Under the pieces are notes generated by a model. That model saw only the letters and a list, made by a program, of their open reading frames with translations, had not been told where the DNA came from and did not search any database. Below are positions 18,835-41,686 of a stretch of 41,686 nt of DNA, piece by piece. Origin of the DNA: Desulfobacteraceae bacterium (GTDB lineage: Bacteria; Desulfobacterota; Desulfobacteria; Desulfobacterales; Desulfococcaceae); contig JAABSQ010000565.1 in the NCBI GenBank assembly GCA_011390315.1, forward strand, positions 1 through 41,686, given 5' to 3'. Within the stretch, counting starts at the first letter, position 1, and every line of letters begins with the position of its first letter. The position numbers and the translations under genes were made by a program.

Positions 18835-19167
18835 ATGATTCATCCTCTTATTGACAGACTTCTTTTATCGACAGGCTTCTTGAGTAAGCATATCTGGTCA
18901 TGCTTGGTGTAAAGAGCGTATTCTATTGTTTTCAAGGTAAATGGATACCTTCATACGGTGTCCGCAAATCATACACGAGATGCCGTTCATCGTCAATAGG
19001 AATGCGGGTTTTTGTTATACCCGCCACTGTCGAGGCATCCCGGGGCTGAGGGCGGGGTGAAGCAAAAAAACAACTTGAAAGTTTTGTCTCGCTGTGTTAG
19101 GCGATACCCGATTTTATTTGATTTACGCCCACTTTGGTTTAATCAAACTTGAAAGGATTTGGGGGAG
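18835..19167. other. Divergent intergenic region between the coiled-coil set and the cytochrome/rnf locus
   Basis: These 333 bases hold no credible gene. Visible structures are a hairpin GCGGGT...ACCCGC (19004-19009 with 19019-19024) and an inverted repeat TTTGATT...AATCAAA just upstream of the cytochrome ribosome site. The second may be a regulator site or a leader hairpin. TTGAAA near 19076 could be a -35 element, but no good -10 follows. The promoters in both directions must lie here; I cannot place them with confidence. Confidence 0.5.
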
Positions 19168-19590
19168 ATGAGTTCAAACAAAGAATTGAAACTGGCTTAT
19201 GGTATAGCGGTTGTTTTGCTGGTCATGGGGATGCTGAGCTATACCGCCCTTTCGGGCGAAGCTCCCGAGGAACCCCTGCGGATCATGTACCGGGGCGCGG
19301 CTGGGGGCGTTCTTTTTAATCATCAGATCCACTCGTATGATTACGGGTTTTCCTGCACCGATTGTCACCACCATCCCGAGGCTGCCGAAGAGATGCTTTC
19401 CTGCAACGCCTGCCACATCTTTCCCGAGGGAGGAGAACTGCCGGTAGCCTGCCTGGAATGCCACGGCGCCGATGAAGTCGACCTGACCGGAGTTCCCAAC
19501 AAGACCGATGCCTTTCATTCCCAGTGCATCGGTTGCCATGAGGACAGCGGAGCCGGTCCCGTCGAGTGCGCCACATGCCACATCCTGTAA
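19168..19590 (+). CDS. Multiheme c-type cytochrome (c3-like, five CxxCH motifs) heading the rnf locus
   Basis: This 140-residue protein begins with a signal or anchor segment (AYGIAVVLLVMGMLSYTAL) and is otherwise periplasmic. Five heme-attachment motifs are visible: CTDCH, CNACH, CLECH, CIGCH and CATCH. Extra histidines in FNHQIH and AFHSQC are candidate axial ligands. The first half resembles the class III (c3/c7) pattern of sulfate reducers, which usually has three or four hemes. I use ATG 19168 with AAAGGA about 9 bases upstream, not the TTG at 19159. Its place 73 bases before rnfC on the same strand suggests it exchanges electrons with the Rnf complex at the periplasmic face, as inferred for cytochromes in other rnf operons. 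Confidence 0.9.
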   Translation: MSSNKELKLAYGIAVVLLVMGMLSYTALSGEAPEEPLRIMYRGAAGGVLFNHQIHSYDYGFSCTDCHHHPEAAEEMLSCNACHIFPEGGELPVACLECHGADEVDLTGVPNKTDAFHSQCIGCHEDSGAGPVECATCHIL

Positions 19591-19612
19591 GGCAAGCGGT
19601 CTTTCACTTGCC
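19591..19612 (+). other. Hairpin between the cytochrome and rnfC genes
   Basis: GGCAAG (19591-19596) and CTTGCC (19607-19612) form a perfect 6-base-pair stem with a 10-base loop directly after the cytochrome stop. No T-run follows, so it is not a good terminator. It may be a processing or mRNA-stability element that sets cytochrome levels apart from rnfC. Confidence 0.45.
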
Positions 19613-19663
19613 GGCTTATGGTTGCCCTTTCACATTTAACGCCCAGAATAAGAAGGTTGGACT

Positions 19664-21043
19664 ATGATGAAAAGATCGTTTTTTGGACTGCAACAGCCTC
19701 GGTTTAAATACGACGCGGTCAGCAATGTGAATATCGAGCCCGTGCGGATTGCGGTTCCGGAGAAAGTGACCCTCTTCCTGAATCGACCGTTCGAGGGGAA
19801 AACGCCACGAACACTCAACGTGGGCGACCGGGTCAAGACCGGCCAGAAGATAACCCTCTATGAAGACAGCGACGCCTATGTGATTTCGTCGGTGACCGGC
19901 GTCATTCGCTCCTTCGATTCCTTCCTCGGTGATTACGGCCAGGCCCTGACCGCCATCAACATCGAGCCGGAACAGACCGATGAATTCGATGAAGCCCTGC
20001 GGAAGGCTTTGGAGGAAGACGGAATCGCCGCCGCGCGGGATTACCTTCTCTCCATCCCCGGGGGGATGCCGCCGGAGATGCTCAAAGGCGGGCACGTAGA
20101 CACCCTGGTGATTTGCGGAATCGAACAGGACCTTCTCTCGATCACCAATCAGTTCGTGACCAAATCCAAGGTATCCGCTATGAACAAGGGCGTCAGCGCC
20201 ATCAAAAAGATCACCGGGGTGCACAAGGTGGTGATGGCCCTGCCCCAGAGCCTCATCCAGGAAGCCGGCGCCATCGGCGGGGCTTCGGGCGTGGAGCTTC
20301 GGGTGATCGAGGACGAGTATCCGTCGGCCAACCCCAGGCTCATCATGCGGGACGTGATGGGTCAGGTCGTGCCGGCCGACAAAAGGCCCGAAGAGCTCGG
20401 CATCTTTTTTGTTAATGCCGAGGCGATTGCCGCCGTGGGCGAGGCGGTGGAAAAAAAGATACTGCCGGTGACCAAGACCCTGACAGTGATCAAAAAGGAT
20501 ATGACAAAGACGGTGGTGGAGGCCCGAATCGGCACCCCGTTCTCCGATATTTTCCAGGCCCTCGACATTACCCTCTTCGATCGAGACCGAATCATCGTGG
20601 GCGGCCCCATGAGCGGAACCACGGTCTACGCCGAAGACCATCCGGTGGACCCCCGCACCTTGTCCATCATGATTCAAGACAGTTCGGATGTGCCGCTGGT
20701 ATCCGATTACCCCTGCATCAATTGCGGCGAATGCGTTCGCATCTGCCCCGCCGATGTTCCGGTCAACATGCTGGTTCGGTTTCTGGAGGCGAGACAATAC
20801 GAGACCGCCGCGGATGAATATGATCTGCATTCCTGCATCGAATGCGGGCTCTGCAGCTTTGTCTGCCCGTCGAAAATTCCCGTTTTTCAGTACATTCGAC
20901 TGGGCAAATATGAACTGGACCGGATTCGTCTGGAAGAGGAAGCCGAGGCCCCGGAGACTTTAGAAGAACCGGCCCCCGAGACCGAGGAAACGACTGAGGA
21001 AGAGACAAAGACAGCGGCAGCGGCCAAGGAAGAGGAGGCGTAG
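19664..21043 (+). CDS. rnfC: Divergent RnfC subunit lacking the FMN/NADH-site motifs
   Basis: RnfC is the peripheral subunit of the ion-pumping ferredoxin:NAD oxidoreductase Rnf and normally holds FMN and the NADH site. This 459-residue protein keeps the N-terminal sandwich-hybrid part (LNVGDRVKTGQKI), the SLBB-like end (IIVGGPMSGTTV) and two 4Fe-4S motifs, CINCGECVRICP (351) and CIECGLCSFVCP (391). The region aligning with GLGGAAFPT and NGCECEPY of ordinary RnfC reads GIAAARDYLLSIPGG and VICGIEQDLLSITNQ at about 120-163. YPQGSEK reads YPSANPR at about 219. The acidic C-terminal tail is low-complexity. It probably still conducts electrons, but NADH oxidation at this subunit looks unlikely. 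Confidence 0.88.
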   Translation: MMKRSFFGLQQPRFKYDAVSNVNIEPVRIAVPEKVTLFLNRPFEGKTPRTLNVGDRVKTGQKITLYEDSDAYVISSVTGVIRSFDSFLGDYGQALTAINIEPEQTDEFDEALRKALEEDGIAAARDYLLSIPGGMPPEMLKGGHVDTLVICGIEQDLLSITNQFVTKSKVSAMNKGVSAIKKITGVHKVVMALPQSLIQEAGAIGGASGVELRVIEDEYPSANPRLIMRDVMGQVVPADKRPEELGIFFVNAEAIAAVGEAVEKKILPVTKTLTVIKKDMTKTVVEARIGTPFSDIFQALDITLFDRDRIIVGGPMSGTTVYAEDHPVDPRTLSIMIQDSSDVPLVSDYPCINCGECVRICPADVPVNMLVRFLEARQYETAADEYDLHSCIECGLCSFVCPSKIPVFQYIRLGKYELDRIRLEEEAEAPETLEEPAPETEETTEEETKTAAAAKEEEA

Positions 21044-21044
21044 A

Positions 21045-22028
21045 ATGTACAACAGGAAAAAATTCATTGTTTCACATGCGCCGTTCTGGCATGACGGCAG
21101 TTGGATTGCCCAGCGAAGCTATAACATTCTGCTGGCCGCGTTGCCGGCGGTGATCCTCAGCATCTACTACTACGGCCTGCCCGCCTTGGGAGTGGTGGCC
21201 CTGTCGGTCTCGTCGGCCATGCTGTGGGAACTTGGATTTACCCGGGTTTCCAAGACCGCCGATACCATCGGAGACGGCAGTGCGGCCGTCATCGGAATGA
21301 TGTTCGCCATGCTGTTGCCGCCGGTGGCGCCTTGGTGGCTGATCGTGGCGGGGACTTTCCTGGCGGTCGTGATCGGCAAAATGATCTACGGCGGGATCGG
21401 CGGCAATCCTTTCAACCCCGCGGTTCTTGCCTACGCTATTATCGGGGTGTCCTGGTGGGATTACCTCAATTTCGACGCCGCCATCGTAAATTACGATCTT
21501 GGCTTCATTACCATGTTTCCGCTGGCCCTGGCCAAACATGCCGGCATGCACACCGACCTGTTCAACGTCCAGCAAATCATCTCTTCTTATAACCTGACCG
21601 ACCTGTTGATGGGGCGGCAGGTGGGCGGCATCGGCGCCACCTTCGGCTTGGGGCTTTTGCTCGGCGGGATCTACCTGATCATCAGGGGCATTATCCGGTG
21701 GGAGATCTCGATCTCCTTTCTGGCGGGGGTGGGTTTTACCGCTCTGCTGTTCCAGGCCGCCGATCCCGGCCGGTATGCGGGTCCCCTGTTTCATCTGTTG
21801 ACCGGGTATACCCTGCTGGGCGCTTTCTTTCTCGCAACCGAGGACTCCTCTTCGCCGGTCAACTTCCTTCCCATGCTGATCTACGGCGCGGCCGCCGGCA
21901 TATTGACGGTCCTGATCCGTAATATCGGCGCCTATCCCGAAGGGGTCATCTTCGCTATTCTGGTGGTCAATCTCATCAACCCGCTGTTGGATAAAATCAG
22001 ACCCAAAGCATTAGGAAAGGTTACGTAA
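21045..22028 (+). CDS. rnfD: RnfD, integral membrane subunit of Rnf
   Basis: RnfD is a polytopic NqrB-like subunit that usually carries covalent FMN on a threonine. The 327-residue protein starts 2 bases after rnfC behind GAGGAGG. Family features include SHAPFWHDG near the N-terminus, GDGSAAVIGMMFAMLLPP, GGIGGNPFNPAVLAYA and the C-terminal TEDSSSPV. Where an SGATPL-type flavinylation motif is expected before LAxxK, this protein reads DLGFITMFPLALAK (about 151-164), so the modified Thr is not recognisable. The cofactor content may therefore be unusual. Confidence 0.92.
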   Translation: MYNRKKFIVSHAPFWHDGSWIAQRSYNILLAALPAVILSIYYYGLPALGVVALSVSSAMLWELGFTRVSKTADTIGDGSAAVIGMMFAMLLPPVAPWWLIVAGTFLAVVIGKMIYGGIGGNPFNPAVLAYAIIGVSWWDYLNFDAAIVNYDLGFITMFPLALAKHAGMHTDLFNVQQIISSYNLTDLLMGRQVGGIGATFGLGLLLGGIYLIIRGIIRWEISISFLAGVGFTALLFQAADPGRYAGPLFHLLTGYTLLGAFFLATEDSSSPVNFLPMLIYGAAAGILTVLIRNIGAYPEGVIFAILVVNLINPLLDKIRPKALGKVT

Positions 22029-22029
22029 A

Positions 22030-22623
22030 ATGGGCGACATGATAAAAATGGTTGTGGTGTTGACGGTGTTGAGCGCATTTTCGGGCGGACTGCTGGCCGC
22101 TATACGAGACAACACCAAAGAGCAGATCGAGGTGCAGCAGTTGACATTCGTCAAGGGGCCGGCCATTCGGGAAATTTTTAAAGATGCCGGCAATGATCCC
22201 ATTTCCGATCGATTCAAGCTTCAGTACGGTGACGAGGAACGCAGCTTTTTCGTGGGCGTCTACGACGGCAACCCCAAGGGGGTGGCCCTGGAGACTTACG
22301 GCAAGGGATACGGCGGAGATGTCGGCCTGATGGTCGGCATCGACACGGAGACCGACAAGATCATCGGCGTGAGCGTGACTACCCATGCGGAAACCCCCGG
22401 CCTCGGCGCCCGGGCCAAGGAAGATCCCGAGTTCTCCGGTCAGTTTGAAGGTCTTTCGCTGACGGACACCATTGCGGTGACCAAAGACGGGGGACAGGTC
22501 AATTCCATCAGCGGCGCCACCATCACCTCTCGGGCGGTGGCCAACGCGGCCCAGAAGGCATCGGATATCTACAAGCGGCTCAAGCCCGAAATCATCGAAA
22601 ATGCGAAAAGCATCGCCAAATAA
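22030..22623 (+). CDS. rnfG: RnfG, membrane-anchored periplasmic flavoprotein subunit
   Basis: RnfG is anchored by one N-terminal helix (MIKMVVVLTVLSAFSGGLLAAI) and exposes an FMN-binding domain to the periplasm. The 197-residue protein has the family segment TTHAETPGLGARA and the flavinylation motif SGATITS near residue 160, whose Thr would carry FMN attached by ApbE. No apbE lies in this window. It is tightly spaced after rnfD and before rnfE. This subunit is the likeliest contact for the periplasmic cytochrome encoded at the head of the locus. Confidence 0.94.
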   Translation: MGDMIKMVVVLTVLSAFSGGLLAAIRDNTKEQIEVQQLTFVKGPAIREIFKDAGNDPISDRFKLQYGDEERSFFVGVYDGNPKGVALETYGKGYGGDVGLMVGIDTETDKIIGVSVTTHAETPGLGARAKEDPEFSGQFEGLSLTDTIAVTKDGGQVNSISGATITSRAVANAAQKASDIYKRLKPEIIENAKSIAK

Positions 22624-22634
22624 GGGGGATACAC

Positions 22635-23228
22635 ATGGCTAAAACGCTTGTTCAGGAATTTACAAAAGGTCTCTGGAACGAAATTCCGCCCTTCCGCCTG
22701 GTGCTCGGGCTATGCCCCACGTTGGCGGTGACCAAATCGGTGGAAAGCGGCATCGGCATGGGGCTGGCCACCACCTTCGTTCTGGTCTGCTCCAATGTTT
22801 TGGTATCATTGTTGAGAAACGTCATTCCGCCCAAGGTTCGAATCGCTTGTTTCATTATCGTCATCGCCACTTTCGTGACGGTGGTAGAGCTGGTCATGCA
22901 GGCGTACGCCTATCCGCTGTTTCTGACCCTGGGTATCTTCATTCCGCTGATCGTGGTGAACTGTATTGTTCTGGGGCGGTCCGAGGCGTTCGCATCCAAG
23001 AACAATCTGATCCGCTCCACTGCGGACGGTCTCGGAATCGGCACCGGGTTCACCCTCTCCCTGGGCGCTCTGGGCGGTGTGCGGGAGCTGCTCGGGTACG
23101 GCACACTGCTGGGCAAAGACATCATGCCCGCTTCCTTTGAGCCGTTCTCTTTTGCCATCGAGGCCCCCGGCGCCTTTATCTGCCTCGGTCTCATGCTCTG
23201 CATCATGAATCTCATCGGAAGTAAATAG
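22635..23228 (+). CDS. rnfE: RnfE, integral membrane subunit of Rnf
   Basis: RnfE and its homologue RnfA form an antiparallel membrane pair that, in solved structures, shares an intramembrane iron-sulfur cluster. The 197-residue protein has about six helices and the two cysteine motifs expected: LGLCPTLAVTKS near the N-terminus and VNCIVLGRSEAFA in the middle. AAGGGGGATACAC precedes the ATG. It follows rnfG after 11 bases. Confidence 0.95.
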   Translation: MAKTLVQEFTKGLWNEIPPFRLVLGLCPTLAVTKSVESGIGMGLATTFVLVCSNVLVSLLRNVIPPKVRIACFIIVIATFVTVVELVMQAYAYPLFLTLGIFIPLIVVNCIVLGRSEAFASKNNLIRSTADGLGIGTGFTLSLGALGGVRELLGYGTLLGKDIMPASFEPFSFAIEAPGAFICLGLMLCIMNLIGSK

Positions 23229-23236
23229 GAGGAAAC

Positions 23237-23812
23237 ATGGGCGACTATATCGTTCTTGCCATCAGCTGCATCCTGATCAACAATATTCTTCTGGCCCAGT
23301 ACCTGGGGCAGTGCCCGTTTATGGGAACTTCTAAAAAAATGGAGACGGCCGTGGGGATGGCCATGGCGGTCATCTTTGTTCTGGTCATGGCCGGATTGAT
23401 CACATGGATGGTCAATACCTATATCCTGGTGACCTTCGGGCTCGAGTACCTGCGGACCATCGCTTTTATCCTGGTAATCGCCTCTCTGGTCCAGTTTGTT
23501 GAAATGTTCCTGAAAAAATCGATTCCGGCGCTGTATGCCGGGCTGGGTATTTTTCTTCCCCTGATCACCACCAACTGTGCGGTGATGGGGGCCTGCCTGA
23601 TTAACATTAATGAAGAATACACCTTCATGCAGGCCCTGGTAGCCTCCTTCAGCTACGCGGTGGGATTCGGACTGGCCCTGATTCTGTTTGCAGGCGTACG
23701 GGAACGGATTATTCTTGGGCGGGTTCCGAAACCCCTTCAGGATACTTCCATCGCTCTGGTGACGGCCGGCGTTCTGTCGCTGACCTTCTTCGCCTTCAGG
23801 GGAATGGTCTAA
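23237..23812 (+). CDS. rnfA: RnfA, integral membrane subunit of Rnf
   Basis: RnfA is the partner of RnfE in the membrane core. The 191-residue protein begins with NNILLAQYLGQCPFMGTSK and has TTNCAVMGACLIN, the two cysteine motifs that would bind the shared intramembrane cluster, with about six hydrophobic helices. A strong TAGGAGGAAAC ribosome site precedes the ATG. It is followed by a terminator before rnfB, which breaks the usual contiguity of rnfA and rnfB. Confidence 0.96.
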   Translation: MGDYIVLAISCILINNILLAQYLGQCPFMGTSKKMETAVGMAMAVIFVLVMAGLITWMVNTYILVTFGLEYLRTIAFILVIASLVQFVEMFLKKSIPALYAGLGIFLPLITTNCAVMGACLININEEYTFMQALVASFSYAVGFGLALILFAGVRERIILGRVPKPLQDTSIALVTAGVLSLTFFAFRGMV

Positions 23813-23854
23813 AAAACATTAAAAAATTCCAATGATTTATTGTCTTAGAAAAGT

Positions 23855-23887
23855 GGAACAACCCGAATCGGGTTGTCCCTTTTTTTT
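23855..23887 (+). terminator. Intrinsic terminator between rnfA and rnfB
   Basis: GGAACAACCCGA and TCGGGTTGTCCC form a stem of about 11 pairs with one mismatch and a very tight loop, followed directly by TTTTTTTT. This is a strong intrinsic terminator inside the rnf locus. rnfB must then depend on read-through or its own promoter in the short space before 23917, so RnfB may be made at a different level from the other subunits. Confidence 0.88.
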
Positions 23888-23916
23888 CACTCTTACCGTT
23901 TCTAGGAGGTAATAAC

Positions 23917-25998
23917 GTGACAGAAGCCATCCTGATTATGTTGGGTATCGGCGCGGTCTGCGGATCGGTGCTGAGTATTGCTTCTAAGATATTTTATGTA
24001 TGGGAGGACCCCCGCATCGCGGAGGTCGAGCGAAACCTGGCCGGCGCCAACTGCGGCGGTTGCGGCTTTGCCGGGTGCGCTTCGGCGGCGGTCGCGGTGG
24101 TGGAGGGGAAAGCCCCTCCGACGGTCTGCGTCATCGCCGGGCCGGAATCCTCGGCCGGTGTTGCCGAAGTGATGGGAATGGACCCGGGTACCGCCGAACC
24201 CTTGAGGTCTCTAAATACCTGCGACGGCGGTATTCGCGCCACCGATAAATACCATTATATGGGGGTCCAGACCTGCGCGGCCCTGACCGCTCTTTACGGC
24301 GGAAAGAGAGACTGCATGGTCGGATGCCTGGGCATGGGCGACTGCATCCGTTCCTGTAATTTCGACGCCATCCATATGGGGCCGGACAACTTCCCCATTG
24401 TGGACGAGGCCAAATGCGTGGGATGCGGCGCCTGTGAAAAGGCCTGTCCAAAATCGATTCTGACGGTGAAGACCATGTCCGAGCGGCTGCTTCATCTTAA
24501 TGAATTCGACGATGCCTTGGCGCCTTGCCAGCAGACCTGCCCGGCGGAAATCGATATTCCGACCTATATCAACTGTGTGGCCACCGGCGATTATGAAGGT
24601 GCGGTGAATGCCATTCGTGAACGGAACCCGCTGCTGCTGACCTGTGGCCGTGTCTGCCCGCATCCCTGTGAGGATTACTGCCGACGCGGCATCGAGGACG
24701 AACCGGTTTCCATCAATCAGCTCAAGCGGTTTGCCGCCGATTACGAAATGAACTCCGGCAAGCGGCTGCCTATTCCCTGCGCCCCGGCCACCGGCAAAAA
24801 GGTGGCGGTGATCGGCGGAGGGCCGGCCGGGCTGAGCGCCGCCTATTTTCTGCGGCGGGTGGGCCATAATGTCACCATTTTTGAGGCCATGCCCAAGATG
24901 GGCGGGATGATCCGCTACGGCATCCCTGAATACCGCCTTCCCAAAAAGGTGCTCGACTGGGAAATCCAGGGCATTCTGGATCTCGGCATCGAAGCCCGAA
25001 CCGGGGTCCGCTTCGGTCGGGAATTCGATATGCAGACCCTCAATAACGAAGGGTTCGATGCGGTATTTATGGGCATCGGGGCCTGGAGCGATTACACCCT
25101 CGGTGTGGAAGGGGAGGATATGAAAGGGTGCTTTACCGGCATCAACTTTCTTTCCCGAATCGCCGGCGGAGAAAAGATCCCCATCGGGAAGAAGGCGGTG
25201 GTAGTCGGCGGCGGAAACACCGCCATCGACTGTGTGCGAACCCTGGTCCGGCTGGGAGCCGAAGAGGTCACTATCCTCTATCGACGGACCCGAGCGGAGA
25301 TGCCGGCCAACGAGGTGGAGATCGTGGCCGCGGAGCACGAAGGGGTCAACTTCCAGTTCCTGGCAGCCCCCACCCGGGTGGTGGGCGAGGAGGGTCGCGC
25401 CGCCCACATCGAATACCTGAAGATGGAGCTCGGCGAACCGGATGCCTCCGGCCGGCGTCGACCGGTGCCGGTGGAAGGCTCCGAGACCCTGCTGGAAGCG
25501 GATATGATCATCAGCGCCATCGGTCAGCGACCGGACGTCTCTTTCAAGCTGAAGGACAAATCCCTGGAGGGGCTCGAGATCACCCGGTGGAACACCATCG
25601 ACAATGAACCGATTACGCTTCAGACCAGCATGCCCAGAATCTTTACCGGCGGCGATTCGGCCACCGGGGCTTCTCTGGTGGTGGAAGCCATCGGAGGCGG
25701 CAGGCGGGCGGCCCGATCCATTCACCAGTACCTGATGGGCGAAAAGATACAACCTCCCGAAAAAGTGCTGTTTAAGGAGCATATTCCGACCTCTCTGTTC
25801 GAACGGGTGGAGGGCATCATTAAGTCGCCTCGGGCGGAAATGCCTGAATTGCCGGTTAAGGAGAGAATCAAAACATTCGAAGAGGCTGATTTGGTGCTCC
25901 CTGAGTCTGCGGCTTTGGAGGAAGCCAGTCGTTGTCTCAACTGCTGTCGGCTTTGCTACAATCCGGATCTTGTCAAATCGACCCAGAAGGCTGCCTAA
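23917..25998 (+). CDS. rnfB: RnfB fused to a GltD/NfnB-like FAD-NAD(P)H oxidoreductase
   Basis: RnfB is normally a 190-330-residue iron-sulfur protein that accepts electrons from ferredoxin. This one has 693 residues. Residues 1-30 are the membrane anchor, about 45-71 the RnfB cluster CGGCGFAGC...C, and 133-177 two 4Fe-4S motifs (CMVGCLGMGDC, CVGCGACEKACP). Then come the DPYD/GltD-type cluster domain (CQQTCPAEIDIP, CGRVCPHPCEDYC; 204-255), an FAD site VIGGGPAGLSAAYF (298), an NAD(P)H site VVGGGNTAIDC (430), and a C-terminal cysteine group CLNCCRLC. GTG follows CTAGGAGG. All domains are in one frame with motifs intact. I infer that pyridine nucleotide reacts here; whether NADH or NADPH cannot be read from sequence. 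Confidence 0.92.
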   Translation: MTEAILIMLGIGAVCGSVLSIASKIFYVWEDPRIAEVERNLAGANCGGCGFAGCASAAVAVVEGKAPPTVCVIAGPESSAGVAEVMGMDPGTAEPLRSLNTCDGGIRATDKYHYMGVQTCAALTALYGGKRDCMVGCLGMGDCIRSCNFDAIHMGPDNFPIVDEAKCVGCGACEKACPKSILTVKTMSERLLHLNEFDDALAPCQQTCPAEIDIPTYINCVATGDYEGAVNAIRERNPLLLTCGRVCPHPCEDYCRRGIEDEPVSINQLKRFAADYEMNSGKRLPIPCAPATGKKVAVIGGGPAGLSAAYFLRRVGHNVTIFEAMPKMGGMIRYGIPEYRLPKKVLDWEIQGILDLGIEARTGVRFGREFDMQTLNNEGFDAVFMGIGAWSDYTLGVEGEDMKGCFTGINFLSRIAGGEKIPIGKKAVVVGGGNTAIDCVRTLVRLGAEEVTILYRRTRAEMPANEVEIVAAEHEGVNFQFLAAPTRVVGEEGRAAHIEYLKMELGEPDASGRRRPVPVEGSETLLEADMIISAIGQRPDVSFKLKDKSLEGLEITRWNTIDNEPITLQTSMPRIFTGGDSATGASLVVEAIGGGRRAARSIHQYLMGEKIQPPEKVLFKEHIPTSLFERVEGIIKSPRAEMPELPVKERIKTFEEADLVLPESAALEEASRCLNCCRLCYNPDLVKSTQKAA

Positions 25999-26021: not shown

Positions 26022-26074
26022 AATAAAAGCCGCATCCGTCCCCGTCTAAGAGGGGCCGGATGCGGCTTTTATTA
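26022..26074. terminator. Bidirectional intrinsic terminator between rnfB and the thioesterase
   Basis: AAAAGCCGCATCCG (26025-26038) and CGGATGCGGCTTTT (26057-26070) pair perfectly over 14 bases, with an inner CCCC/GGGG stem. A-rich and T-rich flanks on both sides allow termination of rnfB on the plus strand and of the convergent minus-strand operon. Confidence 0.92.
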
Positions 26075-40283: not shown

Positions 40284-40365
40284 TCCCTCTGCTGATTTTT
40301 ATAAAATGCTTGAACAGGCCGCGCCGACCGGCGCCGGCTTTCCGAGGAAATTTCAAGGAGAACTT

Positions 40366-41686
40366 ATGGCACTTTTTTTCAAAGGCTCGGCAAGCGGCGG
40401 CACTTTCCCCCGCGGGGTCCATCCGCCCGAATGGAAGACCTATTCCGAGGACGCGGCCATCGAGGTGGTTCCGCCGCCGCAGAAGGTCATGCTGCCTCTG
40501 CTTCAGAATGTCGGCGCACCCAGCAAGCCGATCGTCAAGCCCAAGACCATGGTCGCCTTCGGGGAAAAGGTCGCCGACGGGGGCGCATTCGTGTCCGCGC
40601 CGCTTCATGCCCCCATCGCCGGCAAGGTGTTGAAGACCGGGGTCACCACCCTGGCCAACGGCCGGCACGTCAGCGCCATTCCCATCAAGGCGGACGGGGA
40701 GCAGCTTTCCGGGCAAGCCCTCTATGATGAAATCCTGGGGGGAGAATGGCCCAAGGAGGGTTTTGAAAAATACGATATCCAGGAGATCGTCGACGCCATT
40801 CAGGGGGCCGGTATCGTGGGGCTCGGCGGAGCCGCTTTTCCCACCCATGTGAAGTATGTTCCCAATGAGAAGAAGCCGATCCATACGGTCCTGATCAACG
40901 GATGCGAATGCGAGCCTTATCTCACCTCCGATTACCGCCTTATGCTGGAGGCCCCTGAAGCCATCGTCAGCGGCGCACTGATCGCCGGCCGGGTCACCGG
41001 GGCCAAGGAGATCTTCATCGGCATCGAAGACAATAAACCCAAGGCGGTCGAAGCCCTGCGGAAGGCGGCGGCCGGCGCCTCCATTCAGGTGGCCGTACTC
41101 AAGACCAAATACCCCCAGGGCAGCGAAAAACAGCTGATCCTGGCCCTGACCGGCAAAGAGGTGCCGATGGGCGGTCTGCCCCTGGATGTGGGCATCGCGG
41201 TGAGCAACGTGGGCACCGCCGCAGCCATGGCCCGGGCCGTGCTTCGGGGAAAGCCCCTGACCCATCGGGTGGTGACGGTGACCGGCGGCGGCATCAAAAC
41301 CCCCAAGAACCTGCTGGCCCCGATCGGGATTCCTCTGGGGGAACTGATCGATTTCTGCGGCGGACTCACCGATGACGCGGCCCGAATGATCTCCGGCGGT
41401 CCCATGATGGGCTTTTCCTTTACCGACCTCGATTCTCCGGTCACCAAGGGAACCAGCGGGGTTACCATTCTCACGGCGGCGGAGGTCAAAAAGGCCGAGG
41501 AGACCACCTGTGTCCGATGCGGCCGATGCGTGGACGTCTGCCCCATGAACCTGGTGCCTACCAAGCTGGCCTTGGCCTCCCGGCATAAGGATATCGAGTT
41601 GGCCAAACGATACAACATCATGGCCTGTTTCGAGTGCGGCTCCTGTGCGTATATCTGTCCGGCCTCCATCCCGCTGGTTCAGCTGG
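40366..41686 (+). CDS. rnfC: Canonical RnfC (second Rnf locus), 3'-partial
   Basis: This is an ordinary RnfC cut by the window end after 440 codons. It begins after AAGGAG with FPRGVHPPEWK, has VSAPLHAPIAGKV, the FMN/NADH-site motifs GIVGLGGAAFPT (149) and NGCECEPYLTSD (178), and YPQGSEKQLI (249). GGPMMGF with VTKGTSG follows, then two 4Fe-4S motifs, CVRCGRCVDVCP (382) and CFECGSCAYICP (421). The ORF track omits it because no stop lies in the window. The rest of a second rnf operon presumably lies beyond the edge. It serves as an in-window reference for the divergent RnfC at 19664. Confidence 0.96.
   Translation, partial: MALFFKGSASGGTFPRGVHPPEWKTYSEDAAIEVVPPPQKVMLPLLQNVGAPSKPIVKPKTMVAFGEKVADGGAFVSAPLHAPIAGKVLKTGVTTLANGRHVSAIPIKADGEQLSGQALYDEILGGEWPKEGFEKYDIQEIVDAIQGAGIVGLGGAAFPTHVKYVPNEKKPIHTVLINGCECEPYLTSDYRLMLEAPEAIVSGALIAGRVTGAKEIFIGIEDNKPKAVEALRKAAAGASIQVAVLKTKYPQGSEKQLILALTGKEVPMGGLPLDVGIAVSNVGTAAAMARAVLRGKPLTHRVVTVTGGGIKTPKNLLAPIGIPLGELIDFCGGLTDDAARMISGGPMMGFSFTDLDSPVTKGTSGVTILTAAEVKKAEETTCVRCGRCVDVCPMNLVPTKLALASRHKDIELAKRYNIMACFECGSCAYICPASIPLVQL

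What the first reader, a model, noticed from the sequence alone, without database searches (positions are those of the whole stretch)
20018..20400. RnfC that lost its FMN/NADH signatures, with an intact paralogue in the same window
GLGGAAFPT, NGCECEPYLTSD and YPQGSEK in the RnfC at 40366 are replaced by unrelated residues at the corresponding places of the RnfC at 19664. Both 4Fe-4S motifs and the GGPM segment are kept. Loss limited to the nucleotide site argues for a change of role and not for general decay.
Basis: seen in the sequence. Interest (0 to 1): 0.65.

Follow-up and report, generated by a model that had tools for sequence, protein, structure and literature searches.

The report
Rnf2-type RnfC lacking NADH site
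This is the RnfC subunit of a second, already described kind of ion-pumping Rnf complex ('Rnf2') found in most sulfate-reducing Desulfobacterales; it has lost the pocket that binds FMN and NADH while a neighbouring subunit carries a new nucleotide-binding module, so the complex probably does not do the ferredoxin-to-NAD reaction it is annotated with.

Summary
In the RnfC at 19664-21043 the three FMN/NADH motifs are replaced (one also shortened), both 4Fe-4S motifs and GGPM are kept, and a canonical RnfC lies at 40306-41685 on the same contig. It is neither decay nor a local duplicate. Orthologues occur in about 170 of 192 genomes of the class. dN/dS is about 0.1-0.3. A tree of the membrane subunits alone puts all motif-less operons in one clade (SH-aLRT 100, a single change). 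Where the operon is complete it runs cytochrome c - rnfCDGEA - rnfB, with RnfB fused to a GltD/NfnL-like FAD-NAD(P)H module. The type is already published: 'D. toluolica Tol2-type' Rnf, now 'Rnf2', co-localised with a canonical rnf1 in Desulfococcus multivorans (genome G005 here) and seen in proteomes. What I add is the single origin, the reversal of constraint inside RnfC (nucleotide domain least conserved, Fe-S domain most), new conserved residues at the old site, and evidence that the RnfC loss probably came before the RnfB fusion. Most likely RnfC is now an Fe-S relay to a protein partner and nucleotide chemistry sits on RnfB; the electron route is untested.

The parts
19159..19590 (+). 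five-haem c-type cytochrome (143 aa; Cytochrom_CIII / cytochrome c7), N-terminal hydrophobic segment, first gene of the operon
   Evidence: Pfam PF02085 and PF14522; five CxxCH; conserved directly upstream of rnfC in nearly all Desulfobacterales loci
19664..21043 (+). divergent RnfC (459 aa) of the Rnf2 type
20051..20083 (+). place of the GGAxFPT loop: SIPGGMPPEML, five positions shorter; P132 and G133 conserved in the divergent family
20114..20149 (+). place of NGxECEPYLTxD: CGIEQDLLSITN; family consensus GxDxDLLxxTN, D156 invariant in 44 orthologues
20315..20347 (+). place of KYPQGxEKQLI: EYPSANPRLIM; family consensus YPxxLPxMIM, P220 invariant in 44 orthologues
20594..20617 (+). kept GGPM segment (IVGGPMSG)
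20714..20749 (+). first 4Fe-4S motif, kept (CINCGECVRICP)
20834..20869 (+). second 4Fe-4S motif, kept (CIECGLCSFVCP)
21045..22028 (+). RnfD
   Evidence: TIGR01946 241 bits
22030..22623 (+). RnfG with SGAT flavin site; NCBIfam exception model RnfG_DVU2794, 260.8 bits, cut-off 205
22635..23228 (+). RnfE
   Evidence: TIGR01948; membrane-cluster cysteines kept
23237..23812 (+). RnfA
   Evidence: TIGR01943; membrane-cluster cysteines kept
23917..25998 (+). RnfB (aa 1-190: TM helix, Fe-S clusters) fused to a GltD/NfnL-like FAD and NAD(P)H module (aa about 200-610) with a C-terminal Cys cluster
26025..26070 (+). hairpin with T tail just after rnfB, probable end of the operon
   Evidence: read from the sequence printed; inference
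40306..41685 (+). canonical RnfC with intact GGAAFPT, NGCECEP, YPQGSEK (first gene of an rnf1-type operon cut off by the contig end)
   Evidence: complete rnf1 operon seen in G005, L197

Best explanation
19159-25998 is a complete operon for the Rnf2 (D. toluolica Tol2-type) complex. SHOWN: RnfC keeps its fold, its two 4Fe-4S motifs and its place in the operon but has lost the FMN/NADH motifs once, in the ancestor of a clade spread through the phylum; the pump-core cysteines and flavin-attachment motifs are kept; RnfB carries a complete GltD/NfnL-type module with intact FAD and NAD(P)H motifs. INFERRED: RnfC no longer reduces NAD+. It is an Fe-S relay that takes electrons from (or gives them to) the RnfD flavin and hands them to a protein partner. 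Pyridine-nucleotide chemistry, probably NADP(H), now sits on RnfB, on the electron-input side as in Nqr where NqrF takes NADH and NqrA has lost its cofactors. The neighbouring five-haem cytochrome is a possible extra entry or exit on the periplasmic side. The complex would then be a NAD(P)H- and/or ferredoxin-driven ion pump with an acceptor other than NAD+. My confidence: Rnf2 type about 0.95; no NAD chemistry at RnfC about 0.9; NAD(P)H at RnfB as input about 0.4.
For: Motif table of 148 RnfC: 35 intact, 113 lost or degraded; of the intact, 27 have a plain RnfB in reach, none a fused one, and none has a cytochrome c upstream; of the lost, 67 have a fused RnfB in reach and 99 have at least three haem motifs upstream. 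Membrane-subunit tree made without RnfC: lost operons are one side of a branch, SH-aLRT 100, 1 change against 21 in shuffles. Constraint inverted: mean pairwise identity, nucleotide domain 0.54 and Fe-S domain 0.47 in intact RnfC, 0.34 and 0.64 in lost RnfC. New invariant residues at the old site: G133, D156, P220, E253. dN/dS mostly 0.1-0.3, site region included. AF2 model pLDDT 85 matches RnfC (TM 0.73) and NqrA (0.61-0.64). RnfB model pLDDT 86 matches NfnL (TM 0.83 by target); its FAD and NADPH motifs and Fe-S cysteines are invariant or nearly so in 47 sequences. Literature: the same two differences described for D. toluolica and D. multivorans (PMC5109826); Rnf2 in the Desulfobacteraceae core genome and abundant in six strains (PMC11887813).
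Against: No biochemistry exists. Motif loss has a single origin, so its co-occurrence with the fusion and the cytochrome is not independent evidence. Some members have a plain RnfB (L071, L146-L160), so the fusion cannot be what every motif-less RnfC depends on. Some members show no cytochrome upstream (L157, L159, L161, L169, L177). The acidic pair ExE of the FMN site is mostly kept as DxD, so a modified ligand site is not excluded. In D. alaskensis the operon cytochrome DhcA had no fitness effect under most conditions (PMC4215793), although that Rnf was not shown here to belong to this clade.
Confidence: 0.6

Rival explanations
1. Relocated output: ferredoxin still enters at RnfB, electrons cross the membrane core and reach the RnfC Fe-S clusters, then pass to the GltD-like module of RnfB, which reduces NAD(P)+. 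The overall reaction stays ferredoxin:NAD(P)+ with the nucleotide site moved to another subunit.
For: Loss in RnfC and gain on RnfB occur in the same complex in most members; the RnfC Fe-S domain is the most conserved part; RnfB and RnfC lie side by side in solved structures (PMC11889175).
Against: The module is fused to the input subunit by an unbroken series of Fe-S motifs, so it would short-circuit ferredoxin to NAD(P)+ without pumping (inference). The closest RnfB-RnfC clusters are over 30 A apart in A. woodii (PMC11889175). Lineages with plain RnfB also lack the RnfC site, and parsimony puts the RnfC loss before the fusion.
Confidence: 0.2
2. Methanosarcina-like: ferredoxin enters at RnfB and electrons leave on the periplasmic side through RnfG to the operon cytochrome c; RnfC is a side branch and the GltD module an auxiliary port.
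For: A multihaem cytochrome gene directly precedes rnfC in 99 of 113 motif-less loci, including plain-RnfB lineages; the M. acetivorans Rnf does not react with NAD(P) and is linked to cytochrome c (PMC4023990).
Against: M. acetivorans RnfC scores above the canonical TIGR01945 cut-off, so it is not shown to share this loss; several members lack the cytochrome; the RnfC Fe-S domain is conserved more, not less; M. acetivorans MmcA is dispensable on acetate (PMC6703419).
Confidence: 0.2
3. The altered pocket still binds FMN and NAD(H) through different residues.
For: The acidic pair is kept as DxD in most sequences (E167 to D in 102 of 113, E169 to D in 96 of 113), and YP and several residues nearby are kept; deep-branching members retain part of the motifs, e.g. 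NGVDLEPG and KFPQG.
Against: The glycine loop is shortened by about five residues and K149, E207, N209, K210, E241, N268 and T271, invariant or nearly so in 35 canonical RnfC, are gone in most; the nucleotide domain is now the least conserved part.
Confidence: 0.1
4. Decaying or purely structural RnfC, as NqrA is.
For: The model also resembles NqrA (TM 0.61-0.64), which carries no cofactors (PMC12174285).
Against: The Fe-S motifs and domain are the most conserved part; dN/dS is about 0.1-0.3; five Rnf2 subunits are found in proteomes under all tested conditions (PMC5109826).
Confidence: 0.05

Closest known systems
Rnf2 ('Desulfobacula toluolica Tol2-type' Rnf) of Desulfobacteraceae; rnf2 of Desulfococcus multivorans
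   Same: RnfB of about 700 aa with added nucleotide-binding sites, RnfC without the NADH and soluble-ligand-binding domains, a cytochrome gene in the cluster, and co-location with a canonical rnf1 (PMC5109826; G005 is that 4,455,399-bp chromosome, with the two rnfC genes at 3.100 and 3.119 Mbp)
   Different: nothing found; the window operon is an orthologue (RnfC 60% identical to D. multivorans)
canonical Rnf (A. woodii 9ERI, C. tetanomorphum 7ZC6, A. vinelandii 8AHX)
   Same: same six subunits, gene order rnfCDGEA-B, pump-core cysteines and flavin sites, RnfC fold and two 4Fe-4S motifs
   Different: RnfC lacks the FMN/NADH motifs and SLBB; RnfB carries a GltD module; cytochrome c gene in the operon
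Na+-NQR (NqrA, NqrF)
   Same: RnfC/NqrA lost its nucleotide site while the subunit on the input side carries an FAD-NAD(P)H module
   Different: NqrA also lost the Fe-S clusters; NqrF is a different (FNR-like) family; here RnfB itself is kept and extended
NfnL / StnC / NfnA and glutamate synthase small subunit
   Same: RnfB aa 200-610 has the same fold, with FAD and NADP(H) motifs
   Different: fused to a membrane-anchored RnfB instead of a soluble bifurcating enzyme
Methanosarcina acetivorans Rnf with MmcA
   Same: Rnf with a cytochrome c, not NAD(P)-dependent (PMC4023990)
   Different: its RnfC scores above the canonical cut-off; no comparison of its motifs could be made here

Membership tests
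Rnf2 (Tol2-type Rnf) | RnfC lacking the NADH/FMN (51K) motifs and the soluble-ligand-binding (SLBB) domain | tested here: met
Rnf2 (Tol2-type Rnf) | RnfB of about 700 aa with an additional nucleotide-binding module | tested here: met
   693 aa; Pyr_redox_2, Fer4_20; model
Rnf2 (Tol2-type Rnf) | orthology to the D. multivorans rnf2 cluster | tested here: met
   G005 is the 4,455,399-bp D. multivorans chromosome; RnfC 60% identical; membrane-subunit tree groups them
Rnf2 (Tol2-type Rnf) | cytochrome c gene in the cluster | tested here: met
   19159-19590, five CxxCH
canonical ferredoxin:NAD+ Rnf | RnfC with FMN and NADH binding site | tested here: not met
canonical ferredoxin:NAD+ Rnf | pump core: two Cys each in RnfA and RnfE, SGAT flavin sites | tested here: met
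canonical ferredoxin:NAD+ Rnf | ferredoxin:NAD+ oxidoreductase activity coupled to Na+ or H+ transport | not testable with these tools
   no biochemistry; an in-vitro attempt with Desulfovibrio vesicles failed (PMC4841214)
NfnL/GltD-type flavoprotein module (on RnfB) | FAD GxGxxG, second dinucleotide motif GGGNTAxD with YRR, 4Fe-4S cysteines | tested here: met
NQR | NqrF-type FAD/2Fe-2S subunit and cofactor-free NqrA | tested here: not met
   no NqrF; RnfC keeps two 4Fe-4S motifs

The most novel reading that the evidence does not exclude
The nucleotide port of Rnf moved from the output subunit (RnfC) to the input subunit (RnfB), giving an NADPH-fed, protein- or cytochrome-linked ion pump. It would be a second solution, beside Nqr, to turning Rnf around, and the main Rnf of Desulfobacterota sulfate reducers rather than a ferredoxin:NAD+ enzyme.
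Probability: 0.35. Interest if true: 0.65.

Novelty: already known. Interest (0 to 1): 0.33.

Why it matters
Rnf complexes in sulfate reducers are routinely drawn as ferredoxin:NAD+ pumps in energy budgets of marine sediments and of methane-oxidising consortia. If the widespread form lacks the NADH site in RnfC, those budgets use the wrong reaction. The type itself is published, but its reaction is still unknown, and the conserved new residues (P132-G133, D154/D156, Y219-P220, E253) and the intact RnfB nucleotide site are direct mutagenesis targets.

Tried and rejected
Pseudogene or general decay: rejected (proteomics in PMC5109826). Motifs present elsewhere in the protein: none found in profile, alignment or model. 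Recent in-genome duplication: rejected, the two Rnf systems are anciently separate. Fusion as the necessary cause of the loss: not supported, since plain-RnfB members branch deepest in the lost clade and fusion needs 2 changes against 1 for motif loss. Statistical association of loss with fusion or cytochrome: not independent, only one contrast. M. acetivorans and D. vulgaris sequences could not be fetched by name; D. vulgaris is placed only indirectly by the RnfG_DVU2794 model, which scores 198-228 bits on seven lost-clade RnfG and 260.8 on the window's, against 125.8 on one canonical RnfG. PMC11887813 instead assigns Desulfovibrionaceae Rnf to Rnf1, so this is unresolved. A search for a recurrent partner gene downstream of rnfB found none.

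Full report
OBSERVATION. The RnfC at 19664-21043 (459 aa) and the one at 40306-41685 share 26% identity over 273 aligned residues. The second has full-strength Complex1_51K (177.5 bits), RnfC_N (88.9) and SLBB (56.9). The first has 36.8, 30.6 and no SLBB match, and falls below the TIGR01945 cut-off (195.8 against 245.95). In an alignment with the three solved RnfC chains, the GGAxFPT loop is shortened by about five positions and replaced, NGxECEPYLTxD reads CGIEQDLLSITN, and KYPQGxEKQLI reads EYPSANPRLIM, while GGPM and both CxxCxxCxxxCP motifs are kept. The claim that loss is limited to the nucleotide site is too narrow, since SLBB is also gone.

NOT DECAY. A protein search found a match in 175 of 192 genomes of the class. 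Nearly all best hits are orthologues at 39-64% identity, but the counts also admit genomes whose only match is another RnfC, so I say 'about 170'. Eighty named loci come from Desulfobacterales or deltaproteobacterial MAGs and isolates. Pairwise dN/dS over close pairs is mostly 0.1-0.3 in the whole gene and in the former nucleotide region. An AlphaFold2 model (pLDDT 85) is closest to solved RnfC (TM 0.73), then NqrA.

ONE CLADE. A tree of concatenated RnfD, G, E and A, made without RnfC, separates the motif-less operons from the intact ones by one branch (SH-aLRT 100; 1 change, shuffled mean 21). The two RnfC of this window therefore belong to two old, complete Rnf systems and are not a recent duplicate pair. 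Of the 192 class genomes, 172 have an RnfC-family match and 66 have one over the canonical cut-off, so in most of them the divergent form is the only RnfC found.

WHAT CHANGED WITHIN RnfC. In 35 intact sequences the nucleotide domain is the most conserved part (mean pairwise identity 0.54; Fe-S domain 0.47). In 113 motif-less sequences it is the least conserved (0.34) and the Fe-S domain the most (0.64). The site is not free, however: G133, D156, P220, E253 and A254 are invariant in 44 orthologues and P132, Y219 and P224 nearly so. The old acidic pair ExE is mostly kept as DxD, so a modified ligand site is not excluded.

THE REST OF THE OPERON. The gene before rnfC codes for a five-haem c-type cytochrome with an N-terminal hydrophobic segment. 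RnfB is 693 aa: an RnfB part with TM helix and Fe-S motifs, then a GltD/NfnL-like module whose Fe-S cysteines are conserved and whose FAD GGGPAG and second dinucleotide motif GGGNTAID...YRRTR are invariant or nearly so in 47 sequences; its model matches NfnL with TM 0.83. That YRR points to NADP(H) rests on my knowledge of NfnL and DPD and was not tested. The pump-core cysteines of RnfA and RnfE are kept. Where the operon lacks an adjacent rnfB, a fused RnfB was found elsewhere in most such genomes checked. Exceptions exist: L071 and L146-L160 have plain RnfB, and L157, L159, L161, L169 and L177 show no cytochrome upstream. Fewest changes on the tree: motif loss 1, fusion 2, cytochrome 5. Because plain-RnfB members branch deepest, the RnfC loss probably came before the fusion.

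KNOWN. This is a published type. PMC5109826 describes for D. [quoted passage not shown] It reports in D. multivorans a canonical rnf1 and this rnf2 side by side at 3.09 and 3.11 Mbp, with a cytochrome in the rnf2 cluster and subunits of both complexes in proteomes. G005 is that genome: one contig of 4,455,399 bp, canonical rnfC at 3.100 and divergent rnfC at 3.119 Mbp, in the same order as in the window. PMC11887813 calls the complex Rnf2, puts it in the Desulfobacteraceae core genome and finds it abundant in six strains. PMC11434368 independently notes an FAD-dependent oxidoreductase 'instead' of rnfB in many Desulfovibrionaceae. No paper found here reports the single origin, the inverted constraint or the conserved replacement residues; the original D. 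toluolica paper and Pereira et al. 2011 were not held, so I cannot exclude that parts appear there.

MECHANISM. Shown: site lost in RnfC, Fe-S path kept, nucleotide module on RnfB, pump core intact. Inferred: RnfC relays electrons between the RnfD flavin and a protein partner, and nucleotide chemistry is on RnfB. I favour the module as an input port because it is fused to the input subunit through a continuous series of Fe-S motifs, and a nucleotide output there would bypass the pump. This parallels Nqr (PMC4014512, PMC12174285). The identity of the acceptor (cytochrome, quinone, a soluble Fe-S protein) is open, and I put the input model at about 0.4 against relocated output and ferredoxin-to-cytochrome at about 0.2 each.

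VERDICT. Correct and well-spotted observation; the type is already known; the reaction is unknown. Interest is moderate to low as a finding, higher as a pointer to an untested enzyme.

Noticed in passing
window 23858-23876: A strong hairpin followed by a T run lies between rnfA and rnfB (ACAACCCGAATCGGGTTGT, then CCCTTTTTTT), which could lower expression of the fused rnfB relative to rnfCDGEA.
   Followed up: no
L151:14325-16998 and L194 (downstream of rnfB): Directly after rnfB::GltD lies a NuoG-like formate dehydrogenase/molybdopterin oxidoreductase alpha subunit, recalling the GltD-plus-molybdopterin architecture of StnC and NfnA.
   Followed up: partly
L102 and L115, downstream of rnfB: The next gene resembles a periplasmic [NiFe] hydrogenase small subunit; both loci also carry canonical rnf genes on the opposite strand next to the Rnf2 operon.
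   Followed up: no
L146, L149, L150, L154-L156, L160: A deep subgroup with plain RnfB, mostly with a four-haem cytochrome upstream, keeps part of the RnfC motifs (NGVDLEPG, KFPQG, NAMDIEP), a possible intermediate state of the loss.
   Followed up: partly
L151 (6825-7575) and L186: The operon cytochrome has eight CxxCH motifs instead of three to five.
   Followed up: no
L157 and L165, downstream of rnfB: An ApbE/RnfF-like gene follows the fused rnfB, the order reported for Desulfovibrio alaskensis (rnfCDGEABF), suggesting that Desulfovibrio Rnf may belong to this clade although PMC11887813 assigns it to Rnf1.
   Followed up: partly
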